From a virus, in IMG/VR virus record IMGVR_UViG_3300024346_000031, positions 1 to 64,000 of that record: 64,000 nt of DNA. One strand, 5' to 3'. The translations under genes were made by a program, and so were the position numbers. Position 1 is the first letter of the stretch. Every line of letters starts with the position of its first letter. Under the pieces are notes generated by a model. It worked only from the letters and a program-made list of their open reading frames with translations. It was not told the origin of the DNA and did no database searches. Of this stretch, positions 1 to 63,839 are shown one piece after another.

Positions 1-90
1 CTCAAGGTACTACAGGTGCTAATGGTTCTCAAGGTACTACAGGTACTAATGGAGCTCAAGGTACTCAAGGTACTAACGGAAGTCAAGGTA
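1..90 (+). repeat. 90-bp perfect direct repeat, copy 1
   Basis: Bases 1-90 are identical to 1903-1992, at an offset of 1902 bp (634 codons, so in frame). The match may extend left beyond the window. It lies inside collagen-triplet coding sequence and flanks the C1q-like domain. Confidence 0.9.
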
Positions 91-2327
91 CTACAGGTAC
101 TAATGGAGCTCAAGGTACTACAGGTACTAATGGAGCTCAAGGTACTCAAGGTACTAACGGAAGTCAAGGTACTACAGGTACTAATGGAGCTCAAGGTACT
201 ACAGGTACTAACGGAGCTCAAGGTACTCAAGGTACTACAGGTACTAACGGAAGTCAAGGTACTACAGGTACTAATGGAGCTCAAGGTACTCAAGGTGCTA
301 ATGGTACTCAAGGTACTACAGGTACTAATGGAGCTCAAGGTACTCAAGGTGCTAATGGTACTCAAGGTACTCAAGGTACTACAGGTACTAACGGAAGTCA
401 AGGCGTCCAAGGAATTACAGGAGCAACAGGTTCTGTTGTTGGAGGTGTAGCATATACTCAATTATTTGAAACTAATGGAGCTGCAAGAGCCATAACTACT
501 ACGTACACAGGTTGGAATACAACTACATTAGGTGAAAATTCAGGGATGACCTATACAGCTGGTACGGGCGTCACTCCAAGCATAGTTACATGCCAAACAG
601 GGTATGAAGGAGTTTATCAAATCAATGCTGCACTATCATTATCGGTAGATACAAATAATGTAGATGTATATATGGTGATAGAATTAAACGGTTCACCAAT
701 AGCATCTACTGAAGTCGTTAGGCAATTTGATTCAGGTACTATTGGCTCATTTTCAATGACTGAGCTAGTTGACTTATCAGTAGGCGATACATTGGGAGTA
801 TACAAAAAAAGAGTAGGTGGAGGTGCAACGGTGAATATGACCCCAGTTAATTTTTCAGTTGATTTTGTTAAAGTTGTAGGTGTAGGTGCTCAAGGTATTC
901 AGGGAAATACAGGAATACAAGGAATACAAGGAACCCAAGGAATACAAGGAACTACCGGTTCTCAAGGAACAACGGGAATTCAAGGTTTAATTGGAACGCA
1001 AGGAACAACAGGAACAGGTATACAAGGAACAACAGGAAGCCAAGGAATTACAGGTTCACAAGGAACAACAGGAACACAAGGAATTCAAGGAATCACAGGA
1101 GCTCAAGGTACATCTGGTTTAAACGGAGCTCAAGGTACTACAGGTACATCTGGTTTAAACGGAGCTCAAGGTACTACAGGTACGTCTGGTTTAAACGGAG
1201 CTCAAGGTACAAATGGAGCTCAAGGTACTTCAGGTACAAATGGTACTAATGGTTCTCAAGGTACAACTGGTACTAATGGTTCTCAAGGTACTTCAGGTAC
1301 TAATGGAAGTCAAGGTACTTCAGGTACTAATGGTACAAATGGAGCTCAAGGTACTTCAGGTACTAATGGAAGTCAGGGAATAGCAGGTACTAATGGTACA
1401 AATGGAGCTCAAGGTACTTCAGGTACAAATGGAGCTCAAGGTACTTCAGGTACAAATGGAGCTCAAGGTACTTCAGGTACTAATGGAAGTCAGGGAATAG
1501 CAGGCACAAATGGTACTAATGGTTCTCAAGGTACAGCTGGTACTAATGGAAGTCAGGGAATAGCAGGTACTCAAGGTACTACAGGTACTAACGGAGCTCA
1601 AGGTACTTCAGGTACAAATGGTACTAATGGTACTCAAGGAACAACTGGTACTAATGGAGCTCAAGGTACTTCAGGTACTAACGGAGCTCAAGGTACAACT
1701 GGTGCTAATGGTTCTCAAGGTACAACTGGTACTAATGGAGCTCAAGGTACTTCAGGTACTAACGGAGCTCAAGGTACAACTGGTGCTAATGGTTCTCAAG
1801 GTACAACTGGTACTAATGGAGCTCAAGGTACTCAAGGTACTAACGGAAGTCAAGGTACTACAGGTACTAATGGAGCTCAAGGTACTTCAGGTACTAACGG
1901 AGCTCAAGGTACTACAGGTGCTAATGGTTCTCAAGGTACTACAGGTACTAATGGAGCTCAAGGTACTCAAGGTACTAACGGAAGTCAAGGTATTCAAGGC
2001 GTAAAAGGACCACAAGGAGCAACGGGAAGTCAAGGTATTCAAGGAGCAACAGGAAGTCAAGGTATTCAAGGCGTAAAAGGACCACAAGGCGCAACGGGAA
2101 GTCAAGGTATTCAGGGTGTTTTAGGAACAATAGGTTCACAAGGTATACAAGGAATACAAGGTATTGAGCAGCAGCATACTTTTTCATCTGCATCAAGTGC
2201 TGCGGGTCAATATGGATTTAGAGAACGTCAAGTGCCCGACAATGCAGGATTACTTGCAGCCGGATGGGTACAGGTAGTAGTAGGTTCAAAAACTTATTGG
2301 TTACCTGCTTGGCAAGAAGAGGGCTAG
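1..2327 (+). CDS. Collagen-like / C1q-like tail fibre protein (5' partial)
   Basis: The frame is open from base 3 to the TAG at 2325-2327, giving 774 visible codons; the start lies upstream of the window. Visible residues 1-140 and about 292-720 are uninterrupted Gly-X-Y triplets (GTT, GTN, GAQ, GSQ, GTS types) almost free of charge and proline, ending in GVKGPQGATGSQ-type triplets. Between them residues 142-290 form a beta-rich globular domain starting YTQLFETNGAA and containing VDVYMVIELNGS, which resembles C1q/TNF-type jelly rolls. The C-terminal ~55 residues (from EQQHTFSSASSAAG to LPAWQEEG) are a small aromatic-rich tip. Collagen triple helices with trimeric heads are common in phage fibres, so a receptor-binding or side fibre is likely. 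An ATG at 546 is internal and in frame, and is not needed as a start. Confidence 0.85.
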   Translation, partial: QGTTGANGSQGTTGTNGAQGTQGTNGSQGTTGTNGAQGTTGTNGAQGTQGTNGSQGTTGTNGAQGTTGTNGAQGTQGTTGTNGSQGTTGTNGAQGTQGANGTQGTTGTNGAQGTQGANGTQGTQGTTGTNGSQGVQGITGATGSVVGGVAYTQLFETNGAARAITTTYTGWNTTTLGENSGMTYTAGTGVTPSIVTCQTGYEGVYQINAALSLSVDTNNVDVYMVIELNGSPIASTEVVRQFDSGTIGSFSMTELVDLSVGDTLGVYKKRVGGGATVNMTPVNFSVDFVKVVGVGAQGIQGNTGIQGIQGTQGIQGTTGSQGTTGIQGLIGTQGTTGTGIQGTTGSQGITGSQGTTGTQGIQGITGAQGTSGLNGAQGTTGTSGLNGAQGTTGTSGLNGAQGTNGAQGTSGTNGTNGSQGTTGTNGSQGTSGTNGSQGTSGTNGTNGAQGTSGTNGSQGIAGTNGTNGAQGTSGTNGAQGTSGTNGAQGTSGTNGSQGIAGTNGTNGSQGTAGTNGSQGIAGTQGTTGTNGAQGTSGTNGTNGTQGTTGTNGAQGTSGTNGAQGTTGANGSQGTTGTNGAQGTSGTNGAQGTTGANGSQGTTGTNGAQGTQGTNGSQGTTGTNGAQGTSGTNGAQGTTGANGSQGTTGTNGAQGTQGTNGSQGIQGVKGPQGATGSQGIQGATGSQGIQGVKGPQGATGSQGIQGVLGTIGSQGIQGIQGIEQQHTFSSASSAAGQYGFRERQVPDNAGLLAAGWVQVVVGSKTYWLPAWQEEG
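1096..2140 (+). repeat. Degenerate tandem array coding for Gly-X-Y triplets
   Basis: A run of 9-bp multiples built from CAAGGTACT, TCAGGTACT, AATGGAGCT and AATGGTTCT units, with blocks of 36-60 bp repeated exactly several times. It encodes the second collagen-like stalk. Such DNA is prone to expansion and contraction by slippage or recombination. Confidence 0.85.
1903..1992 (+). repeat. 90-bp perfect direct repeat, copy 2
   Basis: Second copy of the sequence at 1-90. Identity stops at base 1993 (T here, C in copy 1). Both copies are in the same reading frame of the fibre gene. Confidence 0.9.
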
Positions 2328-2360
2328 CAATTGACTGGGTAACTATTATAGAACCTAAAA

Positions 2361-2380
2361 TATAGTTTTTGTATAATATA
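2361..2380 (+). promoter_or_regulatory. TTTTTG-TATAATATA promoter-like element
   Basis: TATAGTTTTTGTATAATATA ends 4 bases before the ATG at 2385. It resembles the other host-type elements of the window (TAnnTTT(A)G then TATAATAT). If it is used, the transcript would have only a few leader bases. Confidence 0.45.
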
Positions 2381-2384
2381 AAAC

Positions 2385-4604
2385 ATGTATGATATCTGTA
2401 AACAATCAATAATAAGAGGCGGAAGGATAGCTCCTTTAATTTTACCTTTTAAAGTATCTGACGGTTTAGGTTTAACTAACCCTACAATATTAAAAATAAA
2501 GAATAAAATTTATATTAATATAAGGCACGTTGGATACGCATTATATCATTCTGAAAAAGATCAAAAATTTCAGAGTCCTTATGGATCCCTATGTTACTTA
2601 AATCCAGAAGATGATATTACATTAACTACTAAAAATTTTATTTGTGAATTAAATCCAGATACACTGGAGATAGTTAAATATAAAGAGGTAGATACATCAT
2701 TATTAGATGTAAAGCCAGTTTGGGAGTTTGTAGGATTAGAGGATGCGCGATTAGTTAACTGGGATAATAAGATGCAACTAACTGGTGTAAGAAGAGACAC
2801 AACTACAAATGGAGTAGGTAGAATGGAGTTGTCTGAATTAAAAAACAACTTTAAAGAAATTTCACGAAAAAGAATTGAATCTACTGATGAAAACAGTTAC
2901 TGTGAAAAGAATTGGATGCCAATATCAGATATGCCATATCATTATGTAAAATGGACATGTCCCACAGAAGTAGTAAAGTATGATATTAATACAGGTGTTA
3001 CTACTCAAGTCTCTTTAGTTCAACAAGATGTTTCCTTTAAACGTGACGTAAGGGGTGGTTCACAAGTAGTTAAATATAAAGACTATTATGTAGCATTAAC
3101 TCACGAGGTTGATTTATGGAATGATGAGCAAGGTAGAAAAGATGCACAGTACTATCATAGATTCATAGTTTGGGATAAAGATTGGAATATTGTTTATAAT
3201 TCTGATGAGTTTAAATTTGCTGATGCTAGGATAGAATTTTCTTGTGGTATTCATTTTGAAAAAAATGAACTTTTAATTACATTTGGATTTCAAGATACTA
3301 CATCTTTTATCTTAACAATGCCAAACATATATTTTGAAGAATTAGTTGGAATGAAAAATAACTCTAACTTTTTTGCTCGCGATACAGCAAAAGATATTTT
3401 TACTAAATATGCACTTGATTATGACAATGGCAAAAATAACTTTAACTTAGGTTTATATTATTATCAGCAGTCTCAATGGGCTTCATCGTTATCTTTCTTT
3501 TTAAGAGCAGCTGAAATTGATTTAGATAAAGATCTTATTTATGAGTCTTTGCTTTTTATTGCAAAATGCATATGCAACTTAGGTAGAAGAAAGGTAACAG
3601 AGCTATCGTTATGGAATAATGCACTTAGATTCTGCCCTACGAGACCTGAGGCATATTTATTCATATCTCAGTATTATGAATCCTTTAGTAAGTTTTCTGA
3701 AGCACAATCATTTGCAAAAATCGGTTTAGAATTCAAAGATAATCACGTTCCTTTAAATTCTGAGTTAGGTTATCATCATTATTATCAATTATTATTTCAA
3801 GAAGCCATATGTGATTGGAATTTAGGACAAGGTAACTCGGCAAGAAACAAACTATTAAAACTAGGAAAGTCCATATACCCATTTAATTCTTTCTATAAAG
3901 ATTTGATTCAAAAAAATATTACTTCATTAGGTTCTTCCGGAGATCCATTTTTACCATATAATAAGTCTATGTCCAATAGACTTAAATATAAATTTACTGA
4001 TTATGAAAAAATAGAAAAAAACTATTCGCAAACTTTTCAAGACATGTTTATATTATCTATGCTTAATGGTAAAAAAGATGGTAGATATTTAGAGATAGGT
4101 TCTGCTGATCCCTATCATGGAAGTAATACGGCTTTACTAGAAGAACTAGGCTGGACAGGGCTATCGTTAGAAATTTTAGAAAGAGAAGTAGAAAAGTTTA
4201 AAGAGCATAGAACTAATGAAGTAATTCTATGCGATGCTACTAAATATGATTATCAATCATTAGTAGGGGACTTTGATTATTTACAGGTAGATTGCGAGCC
4301 GCCGGCTACGACATATTATATACTTACAAAAATCCCATTTGATAAGATTAAGTTTTCAGTTATAACTTACGAACACGATCATTATACAGACATGGACAGT
4401 GTATATAGAGAAAAATCAAGAGAATTATTAAAAGAAAAAGGGTATGTAATGGTAGTGGGAAATATTGCACCCGATGATACTTCTACGTATGAAGATTGGT
4501 ATGTTCATCCAGAATGCGTTGATCCAGTTATTTTAGACATTATGAAGCAAAGTAATGATGAAATAAAAAATGCAAAAAAATATATGCTTAATTCATTGTT
4601 GTAA
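2385..4604 (+). CDS. GH130-like beta-propeller + TPR + FkbM-type methyltransferase fusion
   Basis: A 739-aa protein with three parts. Residues 1-325 look like the five-bladed propeller of GH130/GH43-type glycan proteins: LGLTNPTILKIKNKIYI, FVGLEDARLV, CEKNWMPIS, GGSQVVKYKDYYVALTH, IEFSCGIHF. Residues ~345-505 are TPR-like helical repeats (ASSLSFFLRAAEIDL, ALRFCPTRPEAYLFISQYY). Residues ~545-739 match FkbM-type SAM methyltransferases: FQDMFILSMLNGKKDGRYLEIGS, TGLSLEILE, LQVDCEPP. It follows the collagen-like fibre gene on the same strand, so a role in glycan modification or binding on that fibre or on host surface sugar is plausible, but this is inference from position. Hydrolase or phosphorylase activity of the propeller cannot be judged from motifs alone. 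Confidence 0.7.
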   Translation: MYDICKQSIIRGGRIAPLILPFKVSDGLGLTNPTILKIKNKIYINIRHVGYALYHSEKDQKFQSPYGSLCYLNPEDDITLTTKNFICELNPDTLEIVKYKEVDTSLLDVKPVWEFVGLEDARLVNWDNKMQLTGVRRDTTTNGVGRMELSELKNNFKEISRKRIESTDENSYCEKNWMPISDMPYHYVKWTCPTEVVKYDINTGVTTQVSLVQQDVSFKRDVRGGSQVVKYKDYYVALTHEVDLWNDEQGRKDAQYYHRFIVWDKDWNIVYNSDEFKFADARIEFSCGIHFEKNELLITFGFQDTTSFILTMPNIYFEELVGMKNNSNFFARDTAKDIFTKYALDYDNGKNNFNLGLYYYQQSQWASSLSFFLRAAEIDLDKDLIYESLLFIAKCICNLGRRKVTELSLWNNALRFCPTRPEAYLFISQYYESFSKFSEAQSFAKIGLEFKDNHVPLNSELGYHHYYQLLFQEAICDWNLGQGNSARNKLLKLGKSIYPFNSFYKDLIQKNITSLGSSGDPFLPYNKSMSNRLKYKFTDYEKIEKNYSQTFQDMFILSMLNGKKDGRYLEIGSADPYHGSNTALLEELGWTGLSLEILEREVEKFKEHRTNEVILCDATKYDYQSLVGDFDYLQVDCEPPATTYYILTKIPFDKIKFSVITYEHDHYTDMDSVYREKSRELLKEKGYVMVVGNIAPDDTSTYEDWYVHPECVDPVILDIMKQSNDEIKNAKKYMLNSLL

Positions 4605-4649: not shown

Positions 4650-4657
4650 TATAAATA
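4650..4657 (+). promoter_or_regulatory. Late promoter TATAAATA
   Basis: TGTATAAATAATATT is an exact match to the T4 late promoter -10 element recognised by gp55-type factors, and gp55 is encoded in this window. It lies 50 bp upstream of the membrane-protein gene at 4707. Confidence 0.6.
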
Positions 4658-4706: not shown

Positions 4707-5183
4707 ATGATTGGTGGAAGCATGACGAAGTTTGACTATTTACTCAGAATAAGTGTGGTTATATTTGCCTCAATTTCACCTTTATTATGCCTATGTATTT
4801 CAGGGTATGAAGAATCATTATCTTCTTATTGGAATACTGAAACGCAACCTATGTTTATAATATCTAATTTAATAACAGGTTATTATTTAATAGGAATTCC
4901 TAAGTGGAGACTATCTTCATGCTTATTGCTATTAGTTACGGCTTTTTCTATAGAGTACTATCCTAACGTACATAACGTATTAGCTATTATATTTTTTATA
5001 TCATGCATATATCCTCTTTACAAAGCTAATAATTACAGATTCTGTATGTGTATATATTTAATATCTATTTTAGCTGTTCCGTTTAGTTTATTAGTTGCTG
5101 AATTAATAGCTATACTTTCAATATGTTTATTTCATTTATTAACACTTAATAAATTATATAGTATTCAAAAAGAAAGAGTATGA
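4707..5183 (+). CDS. Small multi-pass membrane protein, function unknown
   Basis: A 158-aa protein with four or five hydrophobic segments: LRISVVIFASISPLLCLCI, FIISNLITGYYLIGI, LSSCLLLLVTAF, VLAIIFFISCIYPLY, and a long one near ISILAVPFSLLVAELIAILS. Two ATGs are possible (4707 or 4722, MTKFDYLL); neither has a clear ribosome site. A TATAAATA box upstream suggests late expression. A holin or superinfection-exclusion role would fit a late phage membrane protein, but nothing specific supports either. It ends 6 bp from the convergent minus-strand gene at 5189. Confidence 0.6.
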   Translation: MIGGSMTKFDYLLRISVVIFASISPLLCLCISGYEESLSSYWNTETQPMFIISNLITGYYLIGIPKWRLSSCLLLLVTAFSIEYYPNVHNVLAIIFFISCIYPLYKANNYRFCMCIYLISILAVPFSLLVAELIAILSICLFHLLTLNKLYSIQKERV

Positions 5184-5739: not shown

Positions 5740-6183
5740 TTAATCAAAATGGCCTATTTGTATGTTGTATTCCCACTTACTAGTGTCAAATGTATTATTC
5801 ATATCGATCACTACGGTATCTATGTATAATGGAAGTTCTCCCATTTCCTCGTCATATTTCTCATGAGTTATATCGTCGTCTATTATATCAAAAGAATCTC
5901 GCTCTTCACTTTCAAAGTCTAAGACTGCTCCTTCTACTGCAACACTTTTCAATATAAACATTATTCCATCTATTCCACTTCTTTTGTATTGTACATTTAG
6001 ATCAAATGTAATAACAATCTTGTTTAATACGATTTCAGAATCTTCGCCTATATTTTCACCTTTACTAGTGGTCTTTGGTCTATTATATAAATCAACTCTA
6101 CCATATACATCACTGTCTATAGTTTCTACATAAGATGAATCGTATTTAGATTCAAATAATTTTATATGTTTTCTATTTTTCAT
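5740..6183 (-). CDS. Hypothetical protein with capsid-targeting-like N-terminus
   Basis: A 147-aa protein of unknown family. It starts MKNRKHIKLFESKYDSS; the short basic/aromatic segment followed by LFE|S resembles the N-terminal capsid-targeting peptides of T4 internal proteins, which prohead protease gp21 cuts after (L/I)xE. Three other proteins in the window start similarly (32215-33624, 45107-45649, 45659-46417). The body is acidic and beta-strand rich (EIVLNKIVITFDLNVQY, LPLYIDTVVIDMNN). Its start overlaps the end of the CCA-adding enzyme gene by 11 bp. Confidence 0.5.
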   Translation of the reverse strand: MKNRKHIKLFESKYDSSYVETIDSDVYGRVDLYNRPKTTSKGENIGEDSEIVLNKIVITFDLNVQYKRSGIDGIMFILKSVAVEGAVLDFESEERDSFDIIDDDITHEKYDEEMGELPLYIDTVVIDMNNTFDTSKWEYNIQIGHFD

Positions 6184-7336
6184 AATTTACGAACTCTTTT
6201 ATGTATTTAAATTGATATGATTCATTTGACATTAATTCTTTAAATATATCAACTTCCATTTGTTTTATATATTCACCAACTTTAGGTCCACCTTTAATAT
6301 TCATCTTATCCATTACATCTTTACCACTTACACTAGGTATATACTGAATAAATGTGCGTATTAATTTTTCATCTATGTTATTTAGTTTAGCAAATTTTAA
6401 CATTTGATTATCGTTAACTGAGGTATTATACTGAGACTTTTTAATATCTAATACATTTTCTTGGTTTAAATGAAGAAGAGATTTTAAAAACAATATGTTT
6501 TTAATTTCTTCATTTGAATATGTTACTTTATTTAAAATATCTCTAATTTCTATTGAGTCATTTTCTCTAAGAAGTGTTGCAAGATTTATTATGTAGTCTT
6601 TTTCTTCTACATAGCTTGCGTTTATATTTAGATTTGGGAAAATATATTGAAAAAAGTTATATTTGTCTAAAAGATTCATAAAATATACAACAGAGGAAGA
6701 TTTAGCAATACCTTTTAAAAACTCATCTCTGATTCTTTCAGATGATATTTGATCTAAATCAGGGTCTTTAAGTAAATAATCATGTATACCTTTATCTAAT
6801 TCTGAACCCGTTACGCCTGCGAAACGTATAGCTCTAAGTTTTCTTAGTTTATCGTCTGAAAAGCGATCCGCGGGATCTCCTACTGTTTTTACAACTCCAT
6901 TTTTTAAATCGTCTATTCCTCCTACTAAGTCTACTATTTCTTCTGTTTCAATATCGTAAAATAAAGCATTTATAGTTAAATCTCTTCGTTTAACGTCGTT
7001 TTCTATAGTGGTAAAGGTAACATCATCAGGTCTTCTTCCAGTTCCTACATCTTCTCTAAAAGTAGCTATTTCAAATTCTCCGGTAGGTGTCATAGCTAAC
7101 CATATTCCAAATTGCTCGCCTATAGGTAACATCTTATATATAGGAGATAACATTCTATTTACTTCATCGGGTAATGCATCAGTAGCTAAATCATAGTCCT
7201 TAGGGGTCATTCCAGATAGTGCATCTCTCACTGCGCCTCCTACTAGATATAACTTATATCCATTCTTTTTAAATACATCTCGTATCATTAGAATGTCTTT
7301 TGGTAAATCTATGGTATATTTCTTTTTTATTTTCAT
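6173..7336 (-). CDS. cca: CCA-adding tRNA nucleotidyltransferase (class II)
   Basis: A 387-aa protein with the full class II motif set: LVGGAVRD at residues 31-38, the metal-binding DYD at 47-49 within PKDYDLATDA, GRRPDDVTF, RRDLTINALFYD, IVDLVGGIDDL and LRKLRAIRFAG. The C-terminal ~180 residues are helical, as in the neck/body/tail of these enzymes. The family repairs or completes the 3' CCA of tRNAs using CTP and ATP. It sits inside a tail-gene operon, overlapping its downstream neighbour by 11 bp and only 2 bp after the gp15-like gene. No tRNA genes were seen in the window, so its substrates are either phage tRNAs elsewhere or host tRNAs. Confidence 0.92.
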   Translation of the reverse strand: MKIKKKYTIDLPKDILMIRDVFKKNGYKLYLVGGAVRDALSGMTPKDYDLATDALPDEVNRMLSPIYKMLPIGEQFGIWLAMTPTGEFEIATFREDVGTGRRPDDVTFTTIENDVKRRDLTINALFYDIETEEIVDLVGGIDDLKNGVVKTVGDPADRFSDDKLRKLRAIRFAGVTGSELDKGIHDYLLKDPDLDQISSERIRDEFLKGIAKSSSVVYFMNLLDKYNFFQYIFPNLNINASYVEEKDYIINLATLLRENDSIEIRDILNKVTYSNEEIKNILFLKSLLHLNQENVLDIKKSQYNTSVNDNQMLKFAKLNNIDEKLIRTFIQYIPSVSGKDVMDKMNIKGGPKVGEYIKQMEVDIFKELMSNESYQFKYIKEFVNYEK

Positions 7337-11574: not shown

Positions 11575-14500
11575 CTATATTCCAAATGTACGATAATAAG
11601 CTTGCGCTGAGCCTGTTGCACTAATATCTATTTGAACTCGACAGTTGGCCGGTACTAGTACGTTTCCATACGCTTGAGGTGTACCACCGCTATATCGTTC
11701 TCTGTAATTAGGAACATATATTCCGCTTAATGGAGCAGTTTCAACGCCTATGTATAAATATGAGTATGCTCCGCCAAACCAGAAATATGTAGTTTTATCA
11801 GATGATAATACAGGAGTAGTAGCTTGACCACCGGATCCTGAGGCAGTAAAAAATAAACTAATAGCTGTAGTAGCACTTTGTAATGCGCCAACTTTATCTC
11901 CACTTACTTGCAATTCTCCGCCTACGATTAAGTCTCCTGATAGATAATTACTATCTTCTCCAAAAACTGTTATTCCTTGCACAGATCCTGTTGTAGTTAT
12001 TCCAGCCATATTTATAGAAATAGCTGATATTTGAGTAACATTTGTAACATTAGAAACGGTTATAGCTTGGGGATAGACGACAGTAGCATCTATATTATTC
12101 ATAGCAATGCTCTGCCCTATCGTAAAAAGAAGTGCAGAAGCAACAACATCTGATATATCATTGATTTTTATATCTTGACCGAGTATGGACGGGAAGCTGG
12201 ACGGCGCTGTCGAATATTTAACTCCATTTGCTTCTATAGAGACACCTGTTACAGCGTTGTTAGTCACATCAGTGATACTTTTAGGTTTAATTGCTACGTT
12301 AACTCCACCATCGGTATGTATACCCTGTCCACTGTCTACCCATAGGCCTCCTGAACCTATAGTTGCAGAATTTCTAACCTGTAAATTTTTACCAATTGAA
12401 ACGTTATTAGATACTTTAATATCTTTAGATTGAATATTTCCTATCATGGCGGTAGGTGCGTTTATTCCATCTATTTCTATAGAACGTACACCGCCTGTAT
12501 CTGTATTATTAGTTACGGCAAGAGTATAAATCTTATTACCAACCATAGTCATTTTTCCGGGTTTCCCATTACCTGTTCCAGTTCCAAAGGTCTCAACGGG
12601 ATCTAACAATAAAGGAAACGAATAATCTGTGATATCGTAATTTATAATACACGATCTAGCATTAGCCACATCTTCTGCATAGACATATAAATATCTACCT
12701 GATATTTCAACGTCATGGCCTGTGTAATTAACGGGGAGAGCAGTTGCACTTATTAAAGCAGGTGTAGATGAAATTCTATTTGTTCTATATATGTATAGTT
12801 TATTTAAGTAGACTACAAATATCCTATCTCCTATTACTTTAATTGAACCCGAGATACTACCGGTCGTAGGAATAACTGTGAAGCTATCTATAGTAGTAGC
12901 ATTTGTTAAAGTTGTACTTAACTTAGTTGGTTCGTGTAAAGATACTTTATAGATTTGCAAAGCTCCTAGTGAAGTCATAGACAAAGTATACGCTACGTTA
13001 TTCTGTATGTCAAAATCAATATGTCTACAAAGACTCTTGGTATCTATATAAGCGCCATCTACATACGGACGTCTTGGGTCAGTTATATCAATTGCTATTA
13101 TATTGGAATCATTTAATGCAGTATCTGATTTATCTGTCATTACATAAGCCCAGTTTCCATTTATTTTTACTCTTCTAGAATAATTTAGATCAGGAATGGT
13201 AGTGCCTTGATATGTCGAACCTGTCATAAAAGAGGAAAACGTTGTGGACGCACCTAGCCAGGAAACAATTTTAACGTCACTTTTATCTGAATCTAATTCA
13301 AACACTAAAAATGAATCTTTGAAATGAACATCTGGGCTAATTGGAGGGGCAAAAGAAATGGGTATTTTTCTAACTATTATTCCATATTTTCCAGCAAAAA
13401 CAATATCTCTAGCGTTAGTTAGTGGAATTGATCCGTTAAACACACGACTAGAATTTACGTATCCAGGAAAAGGCCCATCTCCATGTGGGTTTCCATGTAT
13501 ATCATAAGAGTCACTGCCATCTCCTGCATTAATATCGGAATTTTGAACAAAGCTGTTTACTAGCATTGTAGAATTAGGATCTGATATGTCCCATATTTTA
13601 AGAGTACCTGCGACACTAACAGAGGCAGGTAAAGTACCATTGTTTGACTGTACTGCCATCAAATATTGGCCATCTGAAAATATATTACCATAACCTTGTG
13701 CATCTGTTGTCGTTTGAAGAATGGAATCTAGCATTTCAGATTCATAAGGGCTATAGCTATCTGTATATATTTTATTTAGAGAACCTTTATCAAAGTATAA
13801 ATCTCCTTTTATGTAAGTTCTGTCTAAAAAGTCACTTACATTAATAATACCATAGTCTCCATATAAAGATGTTGGTAAGGTTCCTGTTAGTTGACTCTCT
13901 ATGTTTCTAACGATTCCTATAGAAATAGAATAGTTATCAAGTTTAAATTCTATACCGTCTGATGAAATATCTAACACTGAAGTTTCTTTTAAAGGTTCAG
14001 ATGTTCCTATTTTTGTATAAAACCTAGATTGTTGAGGAGTTCCTGTGTCTATATTATACACGGGTGTTTCGAATTCAAAGAAACCTTGTTGATCTATAAG
14101 AGTTAGATTACCCTCATCTTCAGGTAAAGTTAATGAAAATTTAGCTTTGTTAATAATTTCATTAGACAACGGATAATAACTAGGTGTAGATATAGACTTA
14201 GTATATTTTAATTTTAAATTATTATTGATTTCACTAAGCAAGGTGTCTGGACCGTCTGTATATAAAGAACCTAATTCTAAATGGTACCTTCCAAGAGGCG
14301 ATGCTGTATGATCAACCGATATAGTTTGTATAGCATTAAATTCATCATCTGTGCTTGCTGGAAAATTATCTATTGTAGTAACTTTTTCATTCCAATTATT
14401 GAGAAGCAAAGTATCATTATTAGCAGAATTAGCTAGAGTAATGTCTGTGTTTATATCAGCTAAGTCATTTCCATGTCTAGTGAATGTTATATACCTATTA

Positions 14501-14910
14501 TCGTCTGGGCTAGCTAGTCCAAACCCTCTTATAAAAGGAGTAGATCCACTTGATATAATATTATTTACTATACTAGTAAAGTCAGTTATTTGAATCCAAG
14601 TGGATGGAGAACCTTGATATTGATATACACTGCTGCTTATAGTTTCTAAGTAAAAATCTCCTATTAATAAATCTGTAAAAATCTGAGTGTTAGGATCTCC
14701 TACTCCAACGAACCACTTATTTCCTCGTTGACCGTTGTCGCCTTGAATACCCTGAGGTCCAGCGGATCCTAATGGACCGGCTATACCCTGAGGACCAGGT
14801 TGACCTATTCCTAATTCTAATAGTTTGTTAAAGTTAAAATTTACCTTGTCTACATAGATATCCTGTGCATCAGATGAAAATAGTTCTTTAAGATTTATAA
14901 TGACTGCCAT
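11575..14910 (-). CDS. Tail fibre protein: short collagen segment + beta-propeller + distal domain
   Basis: A 1111-aa protein. After an N-terminal attachment-like segment (MAVIINLKELFSSDAQDIYV), residues 36-63 are Gly-X-Y triplets with prolines (GQPGPQGIAGPLG). Residues ~420-830 carry LVIVD-type propeller repeats such as LKIWDISDPNS, IIAIDITDPRRPYVDG and IINYDITDYSFPLL. Then come repetitive beta segments (KDIKVSNNVSIGKNLQVRN) typical of trimeric fibres, and an aromatic/Gly-rich tip (YFWFGGAYSYLYIGVE, QAYYRTFGI). A host-recognition fibre or baseplate spike is likely. Its start lies 3 bp from the end of the 1665-aa gene. Confidence 0.7.
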   Translation of the reverse strand: MAVIINLKELFSSDAQDIYVDKVNFNFNKLLELGIGQPGPQGIAGPLGSAGPQGIQGDNGQRGNKWFVGVGDPNTQIFTDLLIGDFYLETISSSVYQYQGSPSTWIQITDFTSIVNNIISSGSTPFIRGFGLASPDDNRYITFTRHGNDLADINTDITLANSANNDTLLLNNWNEKVTTIDNFPASTDDEFNAIQTISVDHTASPLGRYHLELGSLYTDGPDTLLSEINNNLKLKYTKSISTPSYYPLSNEIINKAKFSLTLPEDEGNLTLIDQQGFFEFETPVYNIDTGTPQQSRFYTKIGTSEPLKETSVLDISSDGIEFKLDNYSISIGIVRNIESQLTGTLPTSLYGDYGIINVSDFLDRTYIKGDLYFDKGSLNKIYTDSYSPYESEMLDSILQTTTDAQGYGNIFSDGQYLMAVQSNNGTLPASVSVAGTLKIWDISDPNSTMLVNSFVQNSDINAGDGSDSYDIHGNPHGDGPFPGYVNSSRVFNGSIPLTNARDIVFAGKYGIIVRKIPISFAPPISPDVHFKDSFLVFELDSDKSDVKIVSWLGASTTFSSFMTGSTYQGTTIPDLNYSRRVKINGNWAYVMTDKSDTALNDSNIIAIDITDPRRPYVDGAYIDTKSLCRHIDFDIQNNVAYTLSMTSLGALQIYKVSLHEPTKLSTTLTNATTIDSFTVIPTTGSISGSIKVIGDRIFVVYLNKLYIYRTNRISSTPALISATALPVNYTGHDVEISGRYLYVYAEDVANARSCIINYDITDYSFPLLLDPVETFGTGTGNGKPGKMTMVGNKIYTLAVTNNTDTGGVRSIEIDGINAPTAMIGNIQSKDIKVSNNVSIGKNLQVRNSATIGSGGLWVDSGQGIHTDGGVNVAIKPKSITDVTNNAVTGVSIEANGVKYSTAPSSFPSILGQDIKINDISDVVASALLFTIGQSIAMNNIDATVVYPQAITVSNVTNVTQISAISINMAGITTTGSVQGITVFGEDSNYLSGDLIVGGELQVSGDKVGALQSATTAISLFFTASGSGGQATTPVLSSDKTTYFWFGGAYSYLYIGVETAPLSGIYVPNYRERYSGGTPQAYGNVLVPANCRVQIDISATGSAQAYYRTFGI

Positions 14911-34578: not shown

Positions 34579-36210
<1,632 letters not shown>

Positions 36211-49227: not shown

Positions 49228-49523
49228 AACCGTTATACGAAAGAATTTTAATTAAACCAGTAGAAAAAGAAACTCAGACTAAGTCTGGTATTCTATTACC
49301 TGGAAAAGCAGTAAAAAGACCTAATATAGGAACAGTTGTTGCTTGCGGAGAAGGAACTCCTCATAATCCAATGAAAGTAAAAGCAGGTGATATTGTATTA
49401 TGTAATAGATACGCGGGTATCGATATAAATTACAAAGATACTTCTCACTATGTTATTATGTCTAATGAAATTATCGCAGTATTGGACACTGTAGATGAAG
49501 TTAAGTTAGACGAATATGAATAG
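49224..49523 (+). CDS. groES: GroES-type co-chaperonin
   Basis: A 99-aa Cpn10. Visible are MKPLYERILIKPVEKE, a mobile loop with SGILLPGKAVKRP (ILL at the place of the GroEL-binding IVL), GTVVACGEGTPHNPMKVKAGD, and the closing strand YVIMSNEIIAVLD. It is a true GroES rather than a T4 gp31-type analogue. It caps GroEL, probably the phage GroEL encoded 13 kb upstream. Translation is coupled to the exonuclease gene (4-bp overlap) and to the next gene (8-bp overlap). Confidence 0.95.
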   Translation: MKPLYERILIKPVEKETQTKSGILLPGKAVKRPNIGTVVACGEGTPHNPMKVKAGDIVLCNRYAGIDINYKDTSHYVIMSNEIIAVLDTVDEVKLDEYE

Positions 49524-50544
49524 GAAGTTTGATTTCAATGACATACTAATATGTCCAGCAATCCAAACATCTATACAATCTAGAGATAATATAGATATTT
49601 ATTATCCAGATGGTAATCTCCCAATAATAACGGCTCCAATGGATACTGTTATATCAAGACAAAACGAACATGCATTTAGCTCTAATAGAATTATAGCGTG
49701 TTTACCTAGGGGTGAAAAGACAGGATTTTCAGGAATAGAATCGTATTCATTGCACGATATAACTAAAATGTTTAATTCTGGTGAACTTAAGAAACACTCA
49801 GGTTACTTAATAGATATAGCCAATGGTCATATCAATGATTTAGAAAGTATCACTAGAAGCATTAAAAACAAATATGGTGATGACATATATCTAATGGTAG
49901 GTAATGTAGCTCATCCTAAAACATATAAAATATTATCTGAAGCGGGTGCAGATTCAATTAGAGTAGGGATAGGTAATGGAGCAGGTTGCTTAACAACACA
50001 GCAAACAGGAGTAGGTTATCCAATGGCTTCTCTTATTCAAGAATGTTATCATGAATCTTGTTCTTTAGATAAACCTGCTATGATAGTGGCAGATGGAGGA
50101 ATGAAGACGTATTCTGATATAATAAAGGCTCTAGCATTAGGCGCAGATTTCGTTATGCTGGGATCTATTTTAAATAAAGCGCTAGAAAGTTGTTCACCAT
50201 GTATGTATGAATCTAAATTTGCAGGAAACTCTACTGGTTTAAATGAATTAACTCATACAGAAGCGTTGGAAATGTTTAACAATGGACAACCCATATTTAA
50301 AAACTTTAGAGGCATGTCAACTAAAGAAGTTCAAAAGAAATGGGGAAAACAAAATATAAAAACCTCAGAAGGTATATCTGAAATTAGACAAGTTGAATAT
50401 ACTCTTTCAGGCTGGACTGACAATTTTAAACACTACTTAAAGTCAGCAATGAGCTACACTAATTCTATAAATCTAAATGAATTTATAGGAAAAGTTGTTA
50501 TTGATATGATAACAAATAACGCTTACGAAAGATTTAAAAAATAA
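49516..50544 (+). CDS. GMP reductase / IMP dehydrogenase family enzyme (GuaC-like)
   Basis: A 342-aa TIM-barrel protein without CBS domains. It has ITAPMDTV, LMVGNVAHPKTYKILSEAGA, the active-site loop IRVGIGNGAGCLTTQQTGVG with the catalytic Cys, VADGGMKTYSDIIKALALGA, and FRGMSTKEVQKK ... TSEGI. The TGVGYP sequence, length (about 345) and missing CBS domains favour GMP reductase (GMP to IMP) over IMP dehydrogenase, though this is not certain. A phage could use it to rebalance purine pools drawn from degraded host RNA. Confidence 0.82.
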   Translation: MNRKFDFNDILICPAIQTSIQSRDNIDIYYPDGNLPIITAPMDTVISRQNEHAFSSNRIIACLPRGEKTGFSGIESYSLHDITKMFNSGELKKHSGYLIDIANGHINDLESITRSIKNKYGDDIYLMVGNVAHPKTYKILSEAGADSIRVGIGNGAGCLTTQQTGVGYPMASLIQECYHESCSLDKPAMIVADGGMKTYSDIIKALALGADFVMLGSILNKALESCSPCMYESKFAGNSTGLNELTHTEALEMFNNGQPIFKNFRGMSTKEVQKKWGKQNIKTSEGISEIRQVEYTLSGWTDNFKHYLKSAMSYTNSINLNEFIGKVVIDMITNNAYERFKK

Positions 50545-50550
50545 CCAAAA

Positions 50551-51129
50551 ATGAAAATGGCAGATATGAATAGCCTACCGCTTCCTTTACATAGAACTCT
50601 TATGTTTGCAAAGGACGTTAATTTAGAGTCAATTGAGGCTTTATCTAGAAATATACTTAGGATAAATGAAGACGATGATCATCTTGAAAAATTGTACAAA
50701 GTCTACGATATAGATTATATCAGAAGACCCATTAAAATAATGATAGATAGTTATGGAGGATATGTATATCAATGTATGGGATTACTTGGTATAATGGAAA
50801 AATCAGTTACTCCTGTGCATACCTATGCAACAGGTGCTGCAATGTCCTGTGGTTTTATGATACTTATATCTGGACATAAAAGGTTTGCCTATAGACATGC
50901 TACTCCTATGTATCATCAAGTATCTACTGGTTTTTGGGGAAAAACACAGGATATGGAAGAAAGTTATAAAGAAACTAAAAGACTTCAACAAAAATTTGAA
51001 AACATAACATTAGAATCAACAAAAATATCTAAAACTAAGTTAAAAGATATTCTTAAAACAAAGCAAGATTGGTACATGGATGCTAAAGAAGCTTTATCAC
51101 ATGGGGTAATAGATAAAATAATAGATTAA
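50551..51129 (+). CDS. ClpP-like serine protease
   Basis: A 192-aa protein. The catalytic triad of ClpP appears intact: Ser in YATGAAMSCGFMIL, His in TPMYHQVSTGFWG, Asp in QDWYMDAKEALSHGVID; IKIMIDSYGGYVYQCMGLLG is the oxyanion strand (IDSyGG). No Clp ATPase gene is near. It may join host ClpX/ClpA, work alone as a peptidase, or serve morphogenesis; some phage prohead proteases are ClpP-like, but this gene is far from capsid genes. The spacing of 6 bp from the GMP reductase gene suggests cotranscription. Confidence 0.85.
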   Translation: MKMADMNSLPLPLHRTLMFAKDVNLESIEALSRNILRINEDDDHLEKLYKVYDIDYIRRPIKIMIDSYGGYVYQCMGLLGIMEKSVTPVHTYATGAAMSCGFMILISGHKRFAYRHATPMYHQVSTGFWGKTQDMEESYKETKRLQQKFENITLESTKISKTKLKDILKTKQDWYMDAKEALSHGVIDKIID

Positions 51130-51958: not shown

Positions 51959-54895
51959 TTAGAAACTTGGAGTAAATCCAGTTGAATCTGAGCTTAATCC
52001 TCCACCAACTCTAGTAATAGTAATTCTATTGATGAATTTATGAATTCCTCTTGGGAAGTCTACACTAATATCAACAATCGCAGTATTAGCTTCAATTACT
52101 TCATTAGTATTATTCTCAGTATCAAATTGTACTGTATAGCCTTGAAGACCTCTAGCATTTACAACTGAGTCCATGTAGTTTTCTAATATTCCTTTAACTC
52201 TTAATCTTGTGATTTCATCATTAAAGTCAAATAAGAAATTAACTAATATTTGTTCAATGTCTCTTTCAATAGTAGATAGGTTATCTCTAATATGAGCATT
52301 GTTAAGAGCTGATTTAACTCTTTGGTATGCAGTGTTATTACTAAATACTGTAATTCCAAATCCTCTTCTTTTAACTATTAAATTATGACCAACTGGCTCT
52401 AAGAAATCTCTATCGTCATTTGTTAAATCATATTCTAATCCAACTACTTCTGGATCAGTGATAATAGCTCTTTTACCAGCAGTAATCAAGAAAGGTGTTC
52501 CGTTCTTGAATTTTCTAACATACGCGTTAGATACATAAGCTGCTGGTGGAACTGATTTAGTTTTACCGCCTTCTCTAATAAGCATGTTTGGCATTACAAA
52601 ATATTCGTAAGATGACAATGGCACTCCATTAACATCTTCATCTGCAAATTTAAAGGTATAGCTTGGATTCAAACTTAAATTACCTCCTTTAGAAATATAT
52701 TCTGTTGAAACTAATTTATTTACAACGTTAACAAAACTAGGGTCAACTGATTTTTCAAATTGTTCAAATGAAGGATCGTTTAATATCGCCATGACCTTTC
52801 CATTCATTGCTGCTATTTTTCCAAGATGATACTTAGAAGATTGAGATAGATCTCCTTCATAAGAATCTACTATATATCTATAATCTATAGTTTCTCTGTC
52901 TGAAAGAGCAGAAGGTATTGCTGTATATTTAAACAGATACTCTAATATCTCTTTTTGTCTATCTGATGTAGAGTTAGGTAACAATCCAGTTCTTATTTTG
53001 AATCCTTTCATACATTGTCCCTTTAAAGAACCTACAAAGTTTGCAATTCCTTTATATACGGATATTGTATTTCCAGTAGTGTCTAATCCATCTACTTCGT
53101 TTATGCTAGGTACCATAGTAGTAATAACATATTCTAACCTATAAGGGCTTAAATCTTCGCTTGATGTAATTGAAATTATCTTAAGCAGCCTAGGTCTTGA
53201 ATCTCCTACTAATCTAGCTTTAATATAGTGATTAACTTTTAAAAATTCATCAATCTCTGCTTTTTCAGCAGCATTAGCTGTATTTATACCTAATACTAAT
53301 TTATTAGGTTGTTGTATTTGATAATCAGTAAAATAATCAGTGTCAGTTAAATCAAATACCTTTTTAAAATCTGAACCTGAATCTAATACATATTTTATGT
53401 AGTCGTCTACGTTATTATACGTATTTACTGCGATTCTATTTAATAAACTGGAATCCTGATATGTGTAAATCTTAATGTAAGAATAATCATTTCCTCCAAG
53501 GTCTTGTATAAAACCATCTTCTATTTTAGAATAATAAGTGTTTACGCCATCAATAGATTCGTCTCCTGTTCTTAAGAAGCCATCTGTATATGCTTTATAA
53601 ACTTTACTATCTTCAAAAGCTATTAAATAATCATCAGCAGCTGTCCATTTAATTAAACTACTTGTTGTTGCTCCAGTAAAATCATTCTCTGGCAAAGACA
53701 AATCTATTTTGTAAATAAGTTCCTTGTCTCCAGGTTTACTATAACTCAATATGTCTATTAAAGGTGTACTATCTGCTACAGTTCCAGATGGTTCAAAACC
53801 ACCGTTGTCTATTGAATATACATCGTCTGAATCTAATTCATCATATCCATGTCCTATTGTATCAACTCTATGTGTTTCCATGTTGATATCGCTAAAATTG
53901 TCGTCTTCTAAGTCTATCAAATCTAATTTATCTGCGTCTAATGCACATAATAAACCGGTAGTGGCAAATAATCTATTTACTAATGAATCAACTGATGCAA
54001 TAGTACCACTTTGATCTTTAAATTCTGGTATCAAACATCCTGTTACTCTAGCGATTGCTTGTACTTCTTGTAAAGCTAAGAATGAAGGTACTTGACTGTC
54101 TATCAATCCGCTTTCATCAAAGAATTGACTAAATAGAGCATCTTTTGATAATCTAATGTTATTAGACCAATCTCCATCTACTATGATTACTTCTACGAAA
54201 TAATCTGAAATAAAATCGTCTGCGCTAACAAAATTAGGAAAGTCAATTGATTCTCCAAAACTAGCATACCATTCTTTAGCTGTTACATCAAATCCAGTAA
54301 CGGTTGCTTTTCTAACCCACACCGTCATATTAGTGTTTCCTGTATTAGCAAAACTTAATATTTTATTTGATGCGATAGATGCGTTACCAAATGAACTAGG
54401 ATTTAATATATAATCATCTCCTAATGCTAAGTTTTTTGATTTATTTAAGCTTTCATCATCCGCGAACCACAGTTTTCTCTTGTTAAAGAATTCAACTAGT
54501 GGATATTGATATGGTGCAGAGTCTTCATTATTAGAAGAAGATTCAGTATTATATGTTGTAAAGTAGGCTTTATCTAAGTTAGCAACAACGTCAGTGTCTG
54601 TATCTAAAGGCAGTACATTCATTGCAAAAACGGGACCTTCCCGTAATGCTACTTCTATTGTTCTATGAAAGTAACTTCCTTGTTTTTCTAATTGAGTATC
54701 TCTGTCTCCATATACTGCGTTTAATGTACGTACATCGTTTATTAATACCACTGTATTAAAAGGACCTTTTCTACTAGATCCTATGATTAATCTTCCTGTC
54801 GTAAGCGGTAGAGCTAGACCTTGACTTTGGTCTATTTCAACTGTATACACACCAGATGATTTAAAGTTGTTTAAGTTTAATACTTTTTCGGCCAT
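51959..54895 (-). CDS. 18: Tail sheath protein (gp18-like)
   Basis: A 978-aa protein, much longer than T4 gp18 (659 aa). The N-terminus NFKSSGVYTVEIDQSQ, then LTTGRLIIGSSRKGPFNTVV, is the sheath family start. The C-terminal domain has PPAAYVSNAYVRKFKNGTPF, GLEYDLTNDDRDFLEPVGHN, LIVKRRGFGITVFSNNTA and an end FPRGIHKFINRITITRVGGG, all typical of gp18. The extra residues are in the middle (about 110-640) and probably form surface-exposed insert domains. It is the contractile outer tube. A GATAAATA late box precedes it. Confidence 0.92.
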   Translation of the reverse strand: MAEKVLNLNNFKSSGVYTVEIDQSQGLALPLTTGRLIIGSSRKGPFNTVVLINDVRTLNAVYGDRDTQLEKQGSYFHRTIEVALREGPVFAMNVLPLDTDTDVVANLDKAYFTTYNTESSSNNEDSAPYQYPLVEFFNKRKLWFADDESLNKSKNLALGDDYILNPSSFGNASIASNKILSFANTGNTNMTVWVRKATVTGFDVTAKEWYASFGESIDFPNFVSADDFISDYFVEVIIVDGDWSNNIRLSKDALFSQFFDESGLIDSQVPSFLALQEVQAIARVTGCLIPEFKDQSGTIASVDSLVNRLFATTGLLCALDADKLDLIDLEDDNFSDINMETHRVDTIGHGYDELDSDDVYSIDNGGFEPSGTVADSTPLIDILSYSKPGDKELIYKIDLSLPENDFTGATTSSLIKWTAADDYLIAFEDSKVYKAYTDGFLRTGDESIDGVNTYYSKIEDGFIQDLGGNDYSYIKIYTYQDSSLLNRIAVNTYNNVDDYIKYVLDSGSDFKKVFDLTDTDYFTDYQIQQPNKLVLGINTANAAEKAEIDEFLKVNHYIKARLVGDSRPRLLKIISITSSEDLSPYRLEYVITTMVPSINEVDGLDTTGNTISVYKGIANFVGSLKGQCMKGFKIRTGLLPNSTSDRQKEILEYLFKYTAIPSALSDRETIDYRYIVDSYEGDLSQSSKYHLGKIAAMNGKVMAILNDPSFEQFEKSVDPSFVNVVNKLVSTEYISKGGNLSLNPSYTFKFADEDVNGVPLSSYEYFVMPNMLIREGGKTKSVPPAAYVSNAYVRKFKNGTPFLITAGKRAIITDPEVVGLEYDLTNDDRDFLEPVGHNLIVKRRGFGITVFSNNTAYQRVKSALNNAHIRDNLSTIERDIEQILVNFLFDFNDEITRLRVKGILENYMDSVVNARGLQGYTVQFDTENNTNEVIEANTAIVDISVDFPRGIHKFINRITITRVGGGLSSDSTGFTPSF

Positions 54896-54916
54896 TACTG
54901 ATACTATATTTTTAAT

Positions 54917-54924
54917 TATTTATC
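54917..54924 (-). promoter_or_regulatory. Late promoter-like GATAAATA before the sheath gene
   Basis: Minus-strand TTGGATAAATAATTAAAAA lies 22 bp upstream of the sheath ATG and shares GATAAATAATT with the box before the 1007-aa gene. Confidence 0.55.
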
Positions 54925-55018
54925 CAATATTCTAACTAATAAAATTAAAAATGCAAAAAAAATAAACCTTTTGCAAATATTTAGTAAAAGATTATACAGT
55001 TTTAAAAAAATAAATAGT

Positions 55019-55483
55019 ATGGCAAACTCAGACAACAAATGTTCAGATTTAGAAGTAAAGGATACATATACTGATGCAAAAGATACATTCGGTATGATTT
55101 ACAATAAACAAAAGGAACTACAGCAACGATTAGGATTAGATTATACGAACCTTTCTCTACAGGAAATAGCAGAGTCTTGGATGGTAAATAAGCATGCAAT
55201 GAGCGATGAATTAAATGAAATGTTTGATGCATTAGGCGGTATAAATGACGGTATAGGCTCATCTGCTTGGAAATACTGGAAAAAAGACCATTATAAATCA
55301 AGCGAAATGACTATTAAGGATTTATCAGATGAAGATAAATTAGAATTATATTACGAATGGATAGATGGACTTCATTTTTATATGAATTTTGCAATAGCAA
55401 TAGGTATGACAAGTAAAGACATTGTAAATTTATACATGGCTAAAAACGCAGAAAATCACGACCGTCAGGATAGAGGTTACTAA
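55019..55483 (+). CDS. dUTPase/dCTPase, all-alpha NTP pyrophosphatase (gp56-like)
   Basis: About 154 aa from ATG 55019 (MANSDNKCSDLEVKD); an upstream in-frame ATG at 54971 would add 16 residues but lies in the AT-rich promoter zone. Motifs of the dimeric all-alpha dUTPases are present: ESWMVNKHAMSDELNEMFDA (E-x-x-E type helix), SSAWKYWKKDH, ELYYEWIDGLHFYM and NLYMAKNAENHDRQDRGY. It hydrolyses dUTP (and in T4 dCTP) to the monophosphate, protecting phage DNA and feeding thymidylate synthesis. Confidence 0.82.
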   Translation: MANSDNKCSDLEVKDTYTDAKDTFGMIYNKQKELQQRLGLDYTNLSLQEIAESWMVNKHAMSDELNEMFDALGGINDGIGSSAWKYWKKDHYKSSEMTIKDLSDEDKLELYYEWIDGLHFYMNFAIAIGMTSKDIVNLYMAKNAENHDRQDRGY

Positions 55484-55496
55484 AAAAATAAAAGAT

Positions 55497-55754
55497 ATGA
55501 AAATACTAGACGATAACGAACAAACAGGATCAACACCAGGTCCAACTAATAATCCATCGATCAACGCTCACTTAAAGGATGCTGAATGGCTTGCTTGCGA
55601 AAAATGTGATTGTAAAACGTTTGTAGAAGCAATGCAAATTAAAAAAATATCAAAGTTTTTGACAGGTTCAGAAAGAGATAGTATTGCACCTATGCCAGTA
55701 ATAGCCTGTGCTTCATGTGGACATGTAAATGCTGAAATGCAGCCTAACTTATAA
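55497..55754 (+). CDS. Small zinc-ribbon protein
   Basis: An 85-aa protein with two CxxC pairs, ACEKCDCKTF and IACASCGHVNAE, about 40 residues apart, forming a probable zinc ribbon. The N-terminus is a polar linker (NEQTGSTPGPTNNP). It sits between the dUTPase and polymerase genes with gaps of 9-13 bp. A role in replication or transcription is possible but unproven. Confidence 0.6.
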   Translation: MKILDDNEQTGSTPGPTNNPSINAHLKDAEWLACEKCDCKTFVEAMQIKKISKFLTGSERDSIAPMPVIACASCGHVNAEMQPNL

Positions 55755-55763
55755 AAAATACAT

Positions 55764-57179: not shown

Positions 57180-57279
57180 TAACATATACATATAATATAG
57201 ACATTAATAATTATTTTACCTATTATAACGTAAGTTGTTCTTATGTAAATATTATACCTAAATATGAAATCAGGGAGAT

Positions 57280-58597: not shown

Positions 58598-58731
58598 TAC
58601 ACCTTATATATGATATAATAATTCATAAGGAATTAAATAATGAGCGCGTTTATTTTAAATTTTAGTAAATAAGAATAAATGTATGAAAACCCACGCATCT
58701 TTTTTAGTACAAAAATAAAAATATAACAAAC

Positions 58732-61779: not shown

Positions 61780-61798
61780 AAAAGTATTGAATAATAAT

Positions 61799-63836: not shown

Positions 63837-63839
63837 TAT

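What the first reader, a model, noticed from the sequence alone, without database searches (positions are those of the whole stretch)
2385..4604. Propeller-TPR-FkbM fusion beside a collagen-like fibre gene
A glycan-type propeller, TPR repeats and a SAM methyltransferase in one phage protein is an unusual combination. It lies 57 bp after the collagen/C1q fibre gene. It may glycan-modify or methylate the Thr/Asn-rich triple helix, or cap host surface sugars to mask receptors.
Basis: partly seen in the sequence, partly recalled or inferred. Interest (0 to 1): 0.6.

Follow-up and report, generated by a model that had tools for sequence, protein, structure and literature searches.

The report
Phage collagen fibre's sugar-modifying partner enzyme
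Next to a very long collagen-like tail-fibre gene, this large Bacteroidota phage carries one protein that joins a sugar-enzyme-like propeller, a protein-binding repeat domain and a methyltransferase; relatives across aquatic phages sit downstream of collagen genes far more often than chance, which suggests the phage decorates its own fibre with methylated sugars.

Summary
Observation confirmed. ORF 2385-4604 (+, 739 aa) starts 57 nt after the collagen ORF and has three parts: a GH130/GT108-like five-bladed propeller (1-330), a TPR superhelix (336-530) and an FkbM-type SAM methyltransferase (531-739). An AlphaFold model (pLDDT 89) and Foldseek agree; Pfam alone sees almost nothing in this member. 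The family is widespread: 14 clusters of fused relatives, in phages nearly lacking Shine-Dalgarno sites; in cyanophage-like contigs the parts are separate adjacent genes, the TPR part joined to FkbM, GT17, GT25, GT2 or radical-SAM domains. Collagen linkage is real: 11 of 14 fused clusters have collagen upstream, none downstream on the same strand; 22 of 24 propeller-bearing contigs carry collagen versus 1 of 21 T4-like controls and 2 of 10 related Bacteroidota jumbo phages. Linked collagens are proline-poor and Thr/Gln-rich. Best explanation: a cytoplasmic fibre-modifying enzyme; TPR docks the fibre, the propeller adds a (probably mannose-type) sugar, FkbM O-methylates it. Substrate and activity are inferred, not shown. 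It works like known viral (A064R) and bacterial (FlmG) systems: a new variant of a known kind.

The parts
3..2327 (+). Collagen-like fibre gene, 5' end cut by the end of the record; 774 aa, 190 G-X-Y triplets in long runs (GTN 40, GTT 27, GAQ 26, GSQ 24), 158 Thr, 7 Pro; putative substrate
   Evidence: (PF01391 E 5e-88)
432..878 (+).
   Evidence: no relative in loci; no Pfam match other than Collagen
2160..2324 (+). Non-collagen C-terminal tail of the fibre, shared with the collagens next to the enzyme in L002, L003 and L005
   Evidence: phmmer E 1.6e-12 to 3.9e-9
2328..2384 (+). 57-nt spacer; no terminator-like site and no Shine-Dalgarno
2385..4604 (+). Propeller-TPR-FkbM fusion gene, 739 aa; no signal-peptide-like N-terminus by eye
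   Evidence: AlphaFold model pLDDT 89.4, pTM 0.81
2385..3374 (+). Residues 1-330: GH130/GT108-like five-bladed beta-propeller, putative glycosyltransferase
2733..2750 (+). GLEDAR motif (residues 117-122), aligned with GLEDPR/GVEDPR of GH130 mannoside phosphorylases; D120 invariant in 29 of 29 propellers
3390..3974 (+). Residues 336-530: TPR superhelix, putative docking of the protein substrate
3975..4601 (+). Residues 531-739: FkbM-type SAM-dependent methyltransferase with conserved YLEIGSADP, SLEI, DYLQVD, ITYEHD and EDWYVHP motifs

Best explanation
The gene encodes a cytoplasmic enzyme that decorates the phage's own collagen-like tail fibre. Proposed steps: (1) the TPR superhelix docks the fibre chain (inferred from fold and from TPR-glycosyltransferases such as FlmG and OGT); (2) the GH130/GT108-like propeller transfers a sugar, most likely mannose-type from GDP-mannose or mannose-1-phosphate, to Thr/Ser (or Asn) of the G-X-Y repeats or to a sugar already there (inferred from fold and the conserved catalytic-type Asp); (3) the FkbM domain O-methylates that sugar, capping it (inferred). 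The likely benefit is stabilising a proline-poor triple helix and/or changing or masking the fibre surface (inferred). Shown here: the domains, their conservation, the modular relatives and the collagen linkage. Not shown: activity, donor, substrate.
For: Fold: the propeller matches beta-1,2-mannobiose phosphorylases and Leishmania GT108 enzymes, including GDP-Man-dependent mannosyltransferases, with the GLED-x-R motif aligned and invariant. The C-terminus is a class-I SAM methyltransferase of FkbM type. The TPR region is most like consensus TPRs and O-GlcNAc transferase. Linkage: 11 of 14 fused clusters have collagen upstream; all 31 same-strand collagen ORFs lie upstream, none in 586 kb downstream; 22 of 24 propeller contigs carry PF01391 against 1 of 21 PhoH-anchored T4-like contigs (Fisher 1.5e-9, or 18 of 20 vs 1 of 21 after clustering, 1.7e-8) and 2 of 10 related Bacteroidota jumbo phages, none of which has the propeller. 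In L004 the gene is 86.5% identical in DNA and accompanied by collagen repeats, while the rest of the window finds no DNA match there, so gene and collagen seem to travel together. Linked collagens have 1.1% Pro at X vs 21% in 124 other viral collagens (p 3.9e-5; 0.03 with GC-matched controls), with more Thr and Gln. Relatives swap FkbM for other glycan enzymes (GT17, GT25, GT2). No other glycan gene was recognised in the ORFs scanned.
Against: No activity or virion glycan data. Collagen without the enzyme is common: only 2 of 120 collagen-anchored viral loci carry the propeller, so collagen fibres do not need it. Tail-fibre regions of aquatic phages collect glycan genes anyway (PMC7029224), so linkage could reflect a shared host-recognition island. 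In the split, cyanophage-like forms the collagen is often farther away. The composition bias may partly reflect lineage. GH130 relatives are mostly phosphorylases or hydrolases, so synthesis is inferred.
Confidence: 0.52

Rival explanations
1. Host-surface modifier: during infection the enzyme adds a methylated sugar to host LPS/EPS to block superinfection; it sits beside the fibre because both belong to the host-recognition island.
For: This is the usual interpretation for glycosyltransferases in the host-recognition cluster of pelagimyophages (PMC7029224). Glycosyltransferase-rich clusters with FkbM genes also occur elsewhere in DSL-LC02, a carrier of the split form. Sequence cannot exclude it.
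Against: The TPR docking module is typical of protein glycosylation (FlmG, PMC7591256; OGT by fold). The gene is one-sidedly downstream of collagen. The window's phage shows no other recognised surface-glycan gene in the ORFs scanned.
Confidence: 0.25
2. The propeller is not catalytic but a glycan- or fibre-binding scaffold; only the FkbM domain acts, methylating a host-made glycan or the fibre itself.
For: P0001 itself does not match PF04041 and relatives match only weakly; sequence identity to GH130/GT108 structures is about 8-14%.
Against: 14 propeller residues including E119-D120, K175-N176-W177 and D304 are invariant over 29 diverse members, as expected for an active site; stand-alone propeller genes exist.
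Confidence: 0.13
3. Catabolic or DNA-related role: a GH130-type phosphorylase feeding on mannosides, or a DNA-hypermodification enzyme.
For: The nearest solved folds are phosphorylases; some phage glycosyltransferases glycosylate DNA (cited in PMC12619734).
Against: Placement with the fibre gene and not with replication genes, the TPR module, and fusion to FkbM; propeller contigs carry collagen far more often than controls.
Confidence: 0.06

Closest known systems
Chlorovirus PBCV-1 A064R (GT-GT-methyltransferase, virion glycan; PMC9614988)
   Same: One viral multidomain protein joining sugar transfer to O-methylation of the sugar; makes a glycan on the virus's own structural protein (the major capsid protein).
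   Different: A064R has a GT-A-like and a novel GT domain, no TPR and no propeller; the substrate is an N-glycan of a capsid protein in a eukaryotic virus. Homology was not tested here.
FlmG of Caulobacter (TPR-glycosyltransferase for flagellins; PMC7591256)
   Same: TPR plus sugar-transfer domain in one cytoplasmic protein; the TPR alone binds the filament protein.
   Different: GT-B enzyme transferring pseudaminic acid; no methyltransferase, and the TPR is N-terminal.
GH130 / GT108 mannoside phosphorylases and mannosyltransferases (PMC8950772)
   Same: Five-bladed propeller, GxED[PA]R motif, Foldseek E 6.7e-10 to 5e-8.
   Different: 8-14% identity, no Pfam match for this member, TPR and FkbM fusion, phage origin.
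Mimivirus collagen galactosylhydroxylysyl glucosyltransferase (PMC9546862)
   Same: Virus-encoded glycosylation of virus-encoded collagen.
   Different: Acts on hydroxylysine; no relation to the propeller was tested; eukaryotic virus. The collagen here has few Lys (6 of 774 residues).
Bacillus BclA glycosylated collagen-like spore filaments (PMC8968730)
   Same: Prokaryotic collagen-like filament carrying sugars that may support the triple helix.
   Different: Bacterial exosporium protein, not a phage fibre; its enzymes were not compared here.
Synechococcus phages DSL-LC02 and S-SCSM2R
   Same: Same propeller (47-52% identity) and TPR parts; DSL-LC02 has them 112 nt from a collagen gene.
   Different: Split into two genes; in DSL-LC02 the collagen is divergent; annotated only as 'beta-mannosyltransferase', 'MGP protein', 'FkbM'.

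Membership tests
GH130 / GT108 clan | Five-bladed beta-propeller fold | tested here: met
   AlphaFold pLDDT 89.4; the best Foldseek hits are GH130 and GT108 structures
GH130 / GT108 clan | Catalytic Asp in the GxEDPR motif | tested here: met
   GLEDAR aligned with GLEDPR/GVEDPR; D120 invariant in 29 of 29; Pro is replaced by Ala
GH130 / GT108 clan | Sequence score above the Pfam PF04041 gathering cut-off | tested here: not met
   No PF04041 match for P0001; best relative only E 1.3e-4. Hence not filed as a GH130 member
GH130 / GT108 clan | Mannoside phosphorolysis or mannosyl transfer | not testable with these tools
   Needs biochemistry
FkbM methyltransferases (PF05050) | Profile match | tested here: inconclusive
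   9 of 20 relatives match, best E 4.5e-6; the window's own domain does not reach the report limit
FkbM methyltransferases (PF05050) | Class-I Rossmann SAM fold with SAM motif | tested here: met
   Model pLDDT 91.4, 512 PDB hits with E <= 0.001; conserved E-x-G..P..N motif
TPR-containing protein glycosyltransferases (FlmG/OGT type) | TPR superhelix joined to a sugar-transfer-type domain | tested here: met
TPR-containing protein glycosyltransferases (FlmG/OGT type) | GT41/GT-B catalytic domain | tested here: not met
   The catalytic-type part is a propeller; works like, but is not a member
Virus-encoded collagen glycosylation | Collagen encoded together with the enzyme | tested here: met
Virus-encoded collagen glycosylation | Demonstrated modification of the collagen | not testable with these tools
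   Needs mass spectrometry of virions

The most novel reading that the evidence does not exclude
A prokaryotic-virus collagen glycosylation system: a new glycosyltransferase family on a GH130-type propeller that acts directly on Thr/Ser (or Asn) of phage collagen fibres, with an in-line O-methyl cap, spread as a fibre-plus-enzyme cassette between phages of different bacterial phyla and allowing nearly proline-free triple helices.
Probability: 0.3. Interest if true: 0.75.

Novelty: new variant of a known kind. Interest (0 to 1): 0.52.

Why it matters
Phage collagen-like fibres are common, but how they stay stable without hydroxyproline, and whether phages decorate them, is open. A conserved enzyme tied to proline-poor, Thr-rich collagens makes that question directly testable in isolated phages (DSL-LC02, S-SCSM2R). 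If true, it would add a propeller-type enzyme to protein glycosylation and matter for how phages in lakes and seas recognise their hosts.

Tried and rejected
Absence in close relatives: contigs with a near-identical helicase (G001, G002) lack the gene and the collagen tail, but alignment showed they cover only window 32157-64000 or 54043-64000, so nothing follows. Cellular relatives: a peptide-pattern scan of GTDB genomes found none; this scan sees close relatives only. A baseplate-anchored control found one contig and was replaced by PhoH. The single-protein PDB and Pfam searches gave only TPR noise, so family profiles were used. Asn sequons: 29 of 60 Asn fit N-x-S/T, but this follows from the G-X-Y repeat and was not taken as evidence. 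The T4-type late promoter word TATAAATA is not upstream of 2385 (nearest at 4650), so late expression of this gene is not shown.

Full report
WHAT IS THERE. The window is bases 1-64000 of an 85,550-base linear virus record. ORF 2385-4604 (+) encodes 739 aa, 57 nt after the stop of a collagen-like ORF whose 5' end is off the record. Pfam sees almost nothing in the single protein (TPR_2, E 0.046). Aligning it with relatives and folding it (pLDDT 89.4, pTM 0.81) resolves three domains. Residues 1-330 form a five-bladed propeller whose best solved matches are GH130 beta-mannoside phosphorylases (7fir, E 6.7e-10) and GT108 Leishmania enzymes, including GDP-Man-dependent mannosyltransferases (6q4x, 6q4w). 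Eight to nine relatives match PF04041, best 1.3e-4. The GLEDAR motif aligns with GLEDPR and GVEDPR of two phosphorylases; G117, E119, D120, K175-N176-W177, H240, D304 and others are invariant over 29 propellers. Residues 336-530 are TPRs resembling designed TPRs and O-GlcNAc transferase. Residues 531-739 are an FkbM-type class-I SAM methyltransferase (PF05050 in 9 of 20 relatives; separate model pLDDT 91.4).

RELATIVES. A viral-contig scan gave 80 loci. In 14 clusters (80% identity) the three domains are fused as here; in others the propeller is one gene and the TPR part the next, joined to FkbM or to GT17, GT25, GT2, radical SAM/SPASM or DUF6445. Isolated phages S-SCSM2R and DSL-LC02 carry the split form. 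A propeller tree puts 18 of 19 fused members in one group, which also holds one unfused 'long' row (support 94/92, just short of the strict threshold); fused loci almost lack Shine-Dalgarno sites, split loci often have them. The window's phage itself has 0 of 38 genes with a Shine-Dalgarno, a Gp23-type capsid and tail proteins closest to Flavobacterium, Chryseobacterium, Tenacibaculum and Prevotella jumbo phages. It is therefore most likely a T4-like Bacteroidota myophage, and the fusion looks like a form favoured in Bacteroidota phages (inference). Related propellers occur in Pithovirus-type giant viruses.

LINKAGE TO COLLAGEN. Eleven of 14 fused clusters have a collagen ORF upstream on the same strand (plus L005). 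Over all loci, 31 same-strand collagen ORFs lie upstream and none in 586 kb downstream (near-copies included). Of 24 propeller contigs, 22 carry PF01391. Controls: 1 of 21 PhoH-anchored T4-like contigs over the cut-off, none with the propeller; Fisher 1.5e-9, and 1.7e-8 after merging near-copies. Of 10 complete Bacteroidota jumbo phages related by tail genes, 8 have neither, 2 have collagen only, none the propeller, while positive controls rang. So the enzyme almost implies collagen, but collagen does not imply the enzyme: 2 of 120 collagen-anchored loci have it, both downstream of collagen on its strand. L004 shares the gene at 86.5% DNA identity and has collagen repeats, while the rest of the window finds no DNA match in it, as expected of a mobile fibre-plus-enzyme cassette. 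The collagen C-terminal tail is shared with L002, L003 and L005.

COMPOSITION. In 16 linked collagen clusters, Pro at position X has median 1.1% against 21% in 124 other viral collagens (p 3.9e-5), Thr 26% vs 16%, Gln 24% vs 8%, charged residues fewer; with controls of GC < 0.36 the differences persist weakly (Pro p 0.03, Thr p 0.02). Thr+Ser together is not significant after GC matching. Glycosylation is thought to help the BclA collagen of Bacillus (PMC8968730), so this is suggestive; lineage is an uncorrected confounder.

MECHANISM. The favoured reading: TPR docks the fibre (as FlmG's TPR binds flagellin, PMC7591256), the propeller transfers a sugar, FkbM methylates it (as A064R joins rhamnosyl transfer to O-methylation on a virion glycan, PMC9614988). 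A mannose-type donor is inferred only from GH130/GT108. Virion glycosylation is known in mycobacteriophages (cited in PMC12619734). The main rival is host-surface modification, the usual view of glycosyltransferases in host-recognition islands (PMC7029224). Against it here: the TPR, the one-sided synteny, and no other recognised glycan gene among the ORFs scanned in the record; small ORFs were not all scanned, and the record is incomplete.

VERDICT. Observation confirmed; interpretation partly supported. The protein works like TPR-glycosyltransferases and like viral GT-methyltransferase fusions, but it is not a member of GH130 by curated cut-off and not of GT41. It is a new variant of a known kind: a collagen-linked, propeller-based candidate fibre-modifying enzyme.

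Noticed in passing
window 1-64000: None of 38 genes checked has a Shine-Dalgarno-like site and GC is 0.30; with tail proteins close to Flavobacterium/Tenacibaculum/Prevotella jumbo phages this points to a Bacteroidota host.
   Followed up: partly
window 34603-36210, 49516-50544, 50551-51129, 6173-7336: Phage-encoded GroEL, IMP dehydrogenase-like protein, Clp protease and CCA-adding tRNA nucleotidyltransferase.
   Followed up: no
window 4650-4657: Exact T4 late-promoter word TATAAATA upstream of the 158-aa hydrophobic ORF 4707-5183 that follows the fusion gene.
   Followed up: no
window 14719-14805 (-), in ORF 11575-14910: A second, short collagen stretch near the N-terminus of a 1111-aa tail-fibre-like protein.
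   Followed up: no
L047:1455-4420, L049:7974-10810, L051:1476-4444: Tandem pairs of propeller genes, the second strongly diverged, in large phage contigs (one of 413 kb).
   Followed up: no
L062:2561-6160, L041:6018-9473, L083:12938-15088: Multi-enzyme proteins with GT17, GT25, GT2, FkbM and radical SAM/SPASM domains joined to the same TPR or propeller parts: a modular toolkit in the tail-fibre region.
   Followed up: partly
BFVD hits: Related propellers in giant viruses (Pithovirus, Satyrvirus, Solivirus, Indivirus), some in proteins annotated as pyruvyl transferase, fucosyltransferase or LicD.
   Followed up: no
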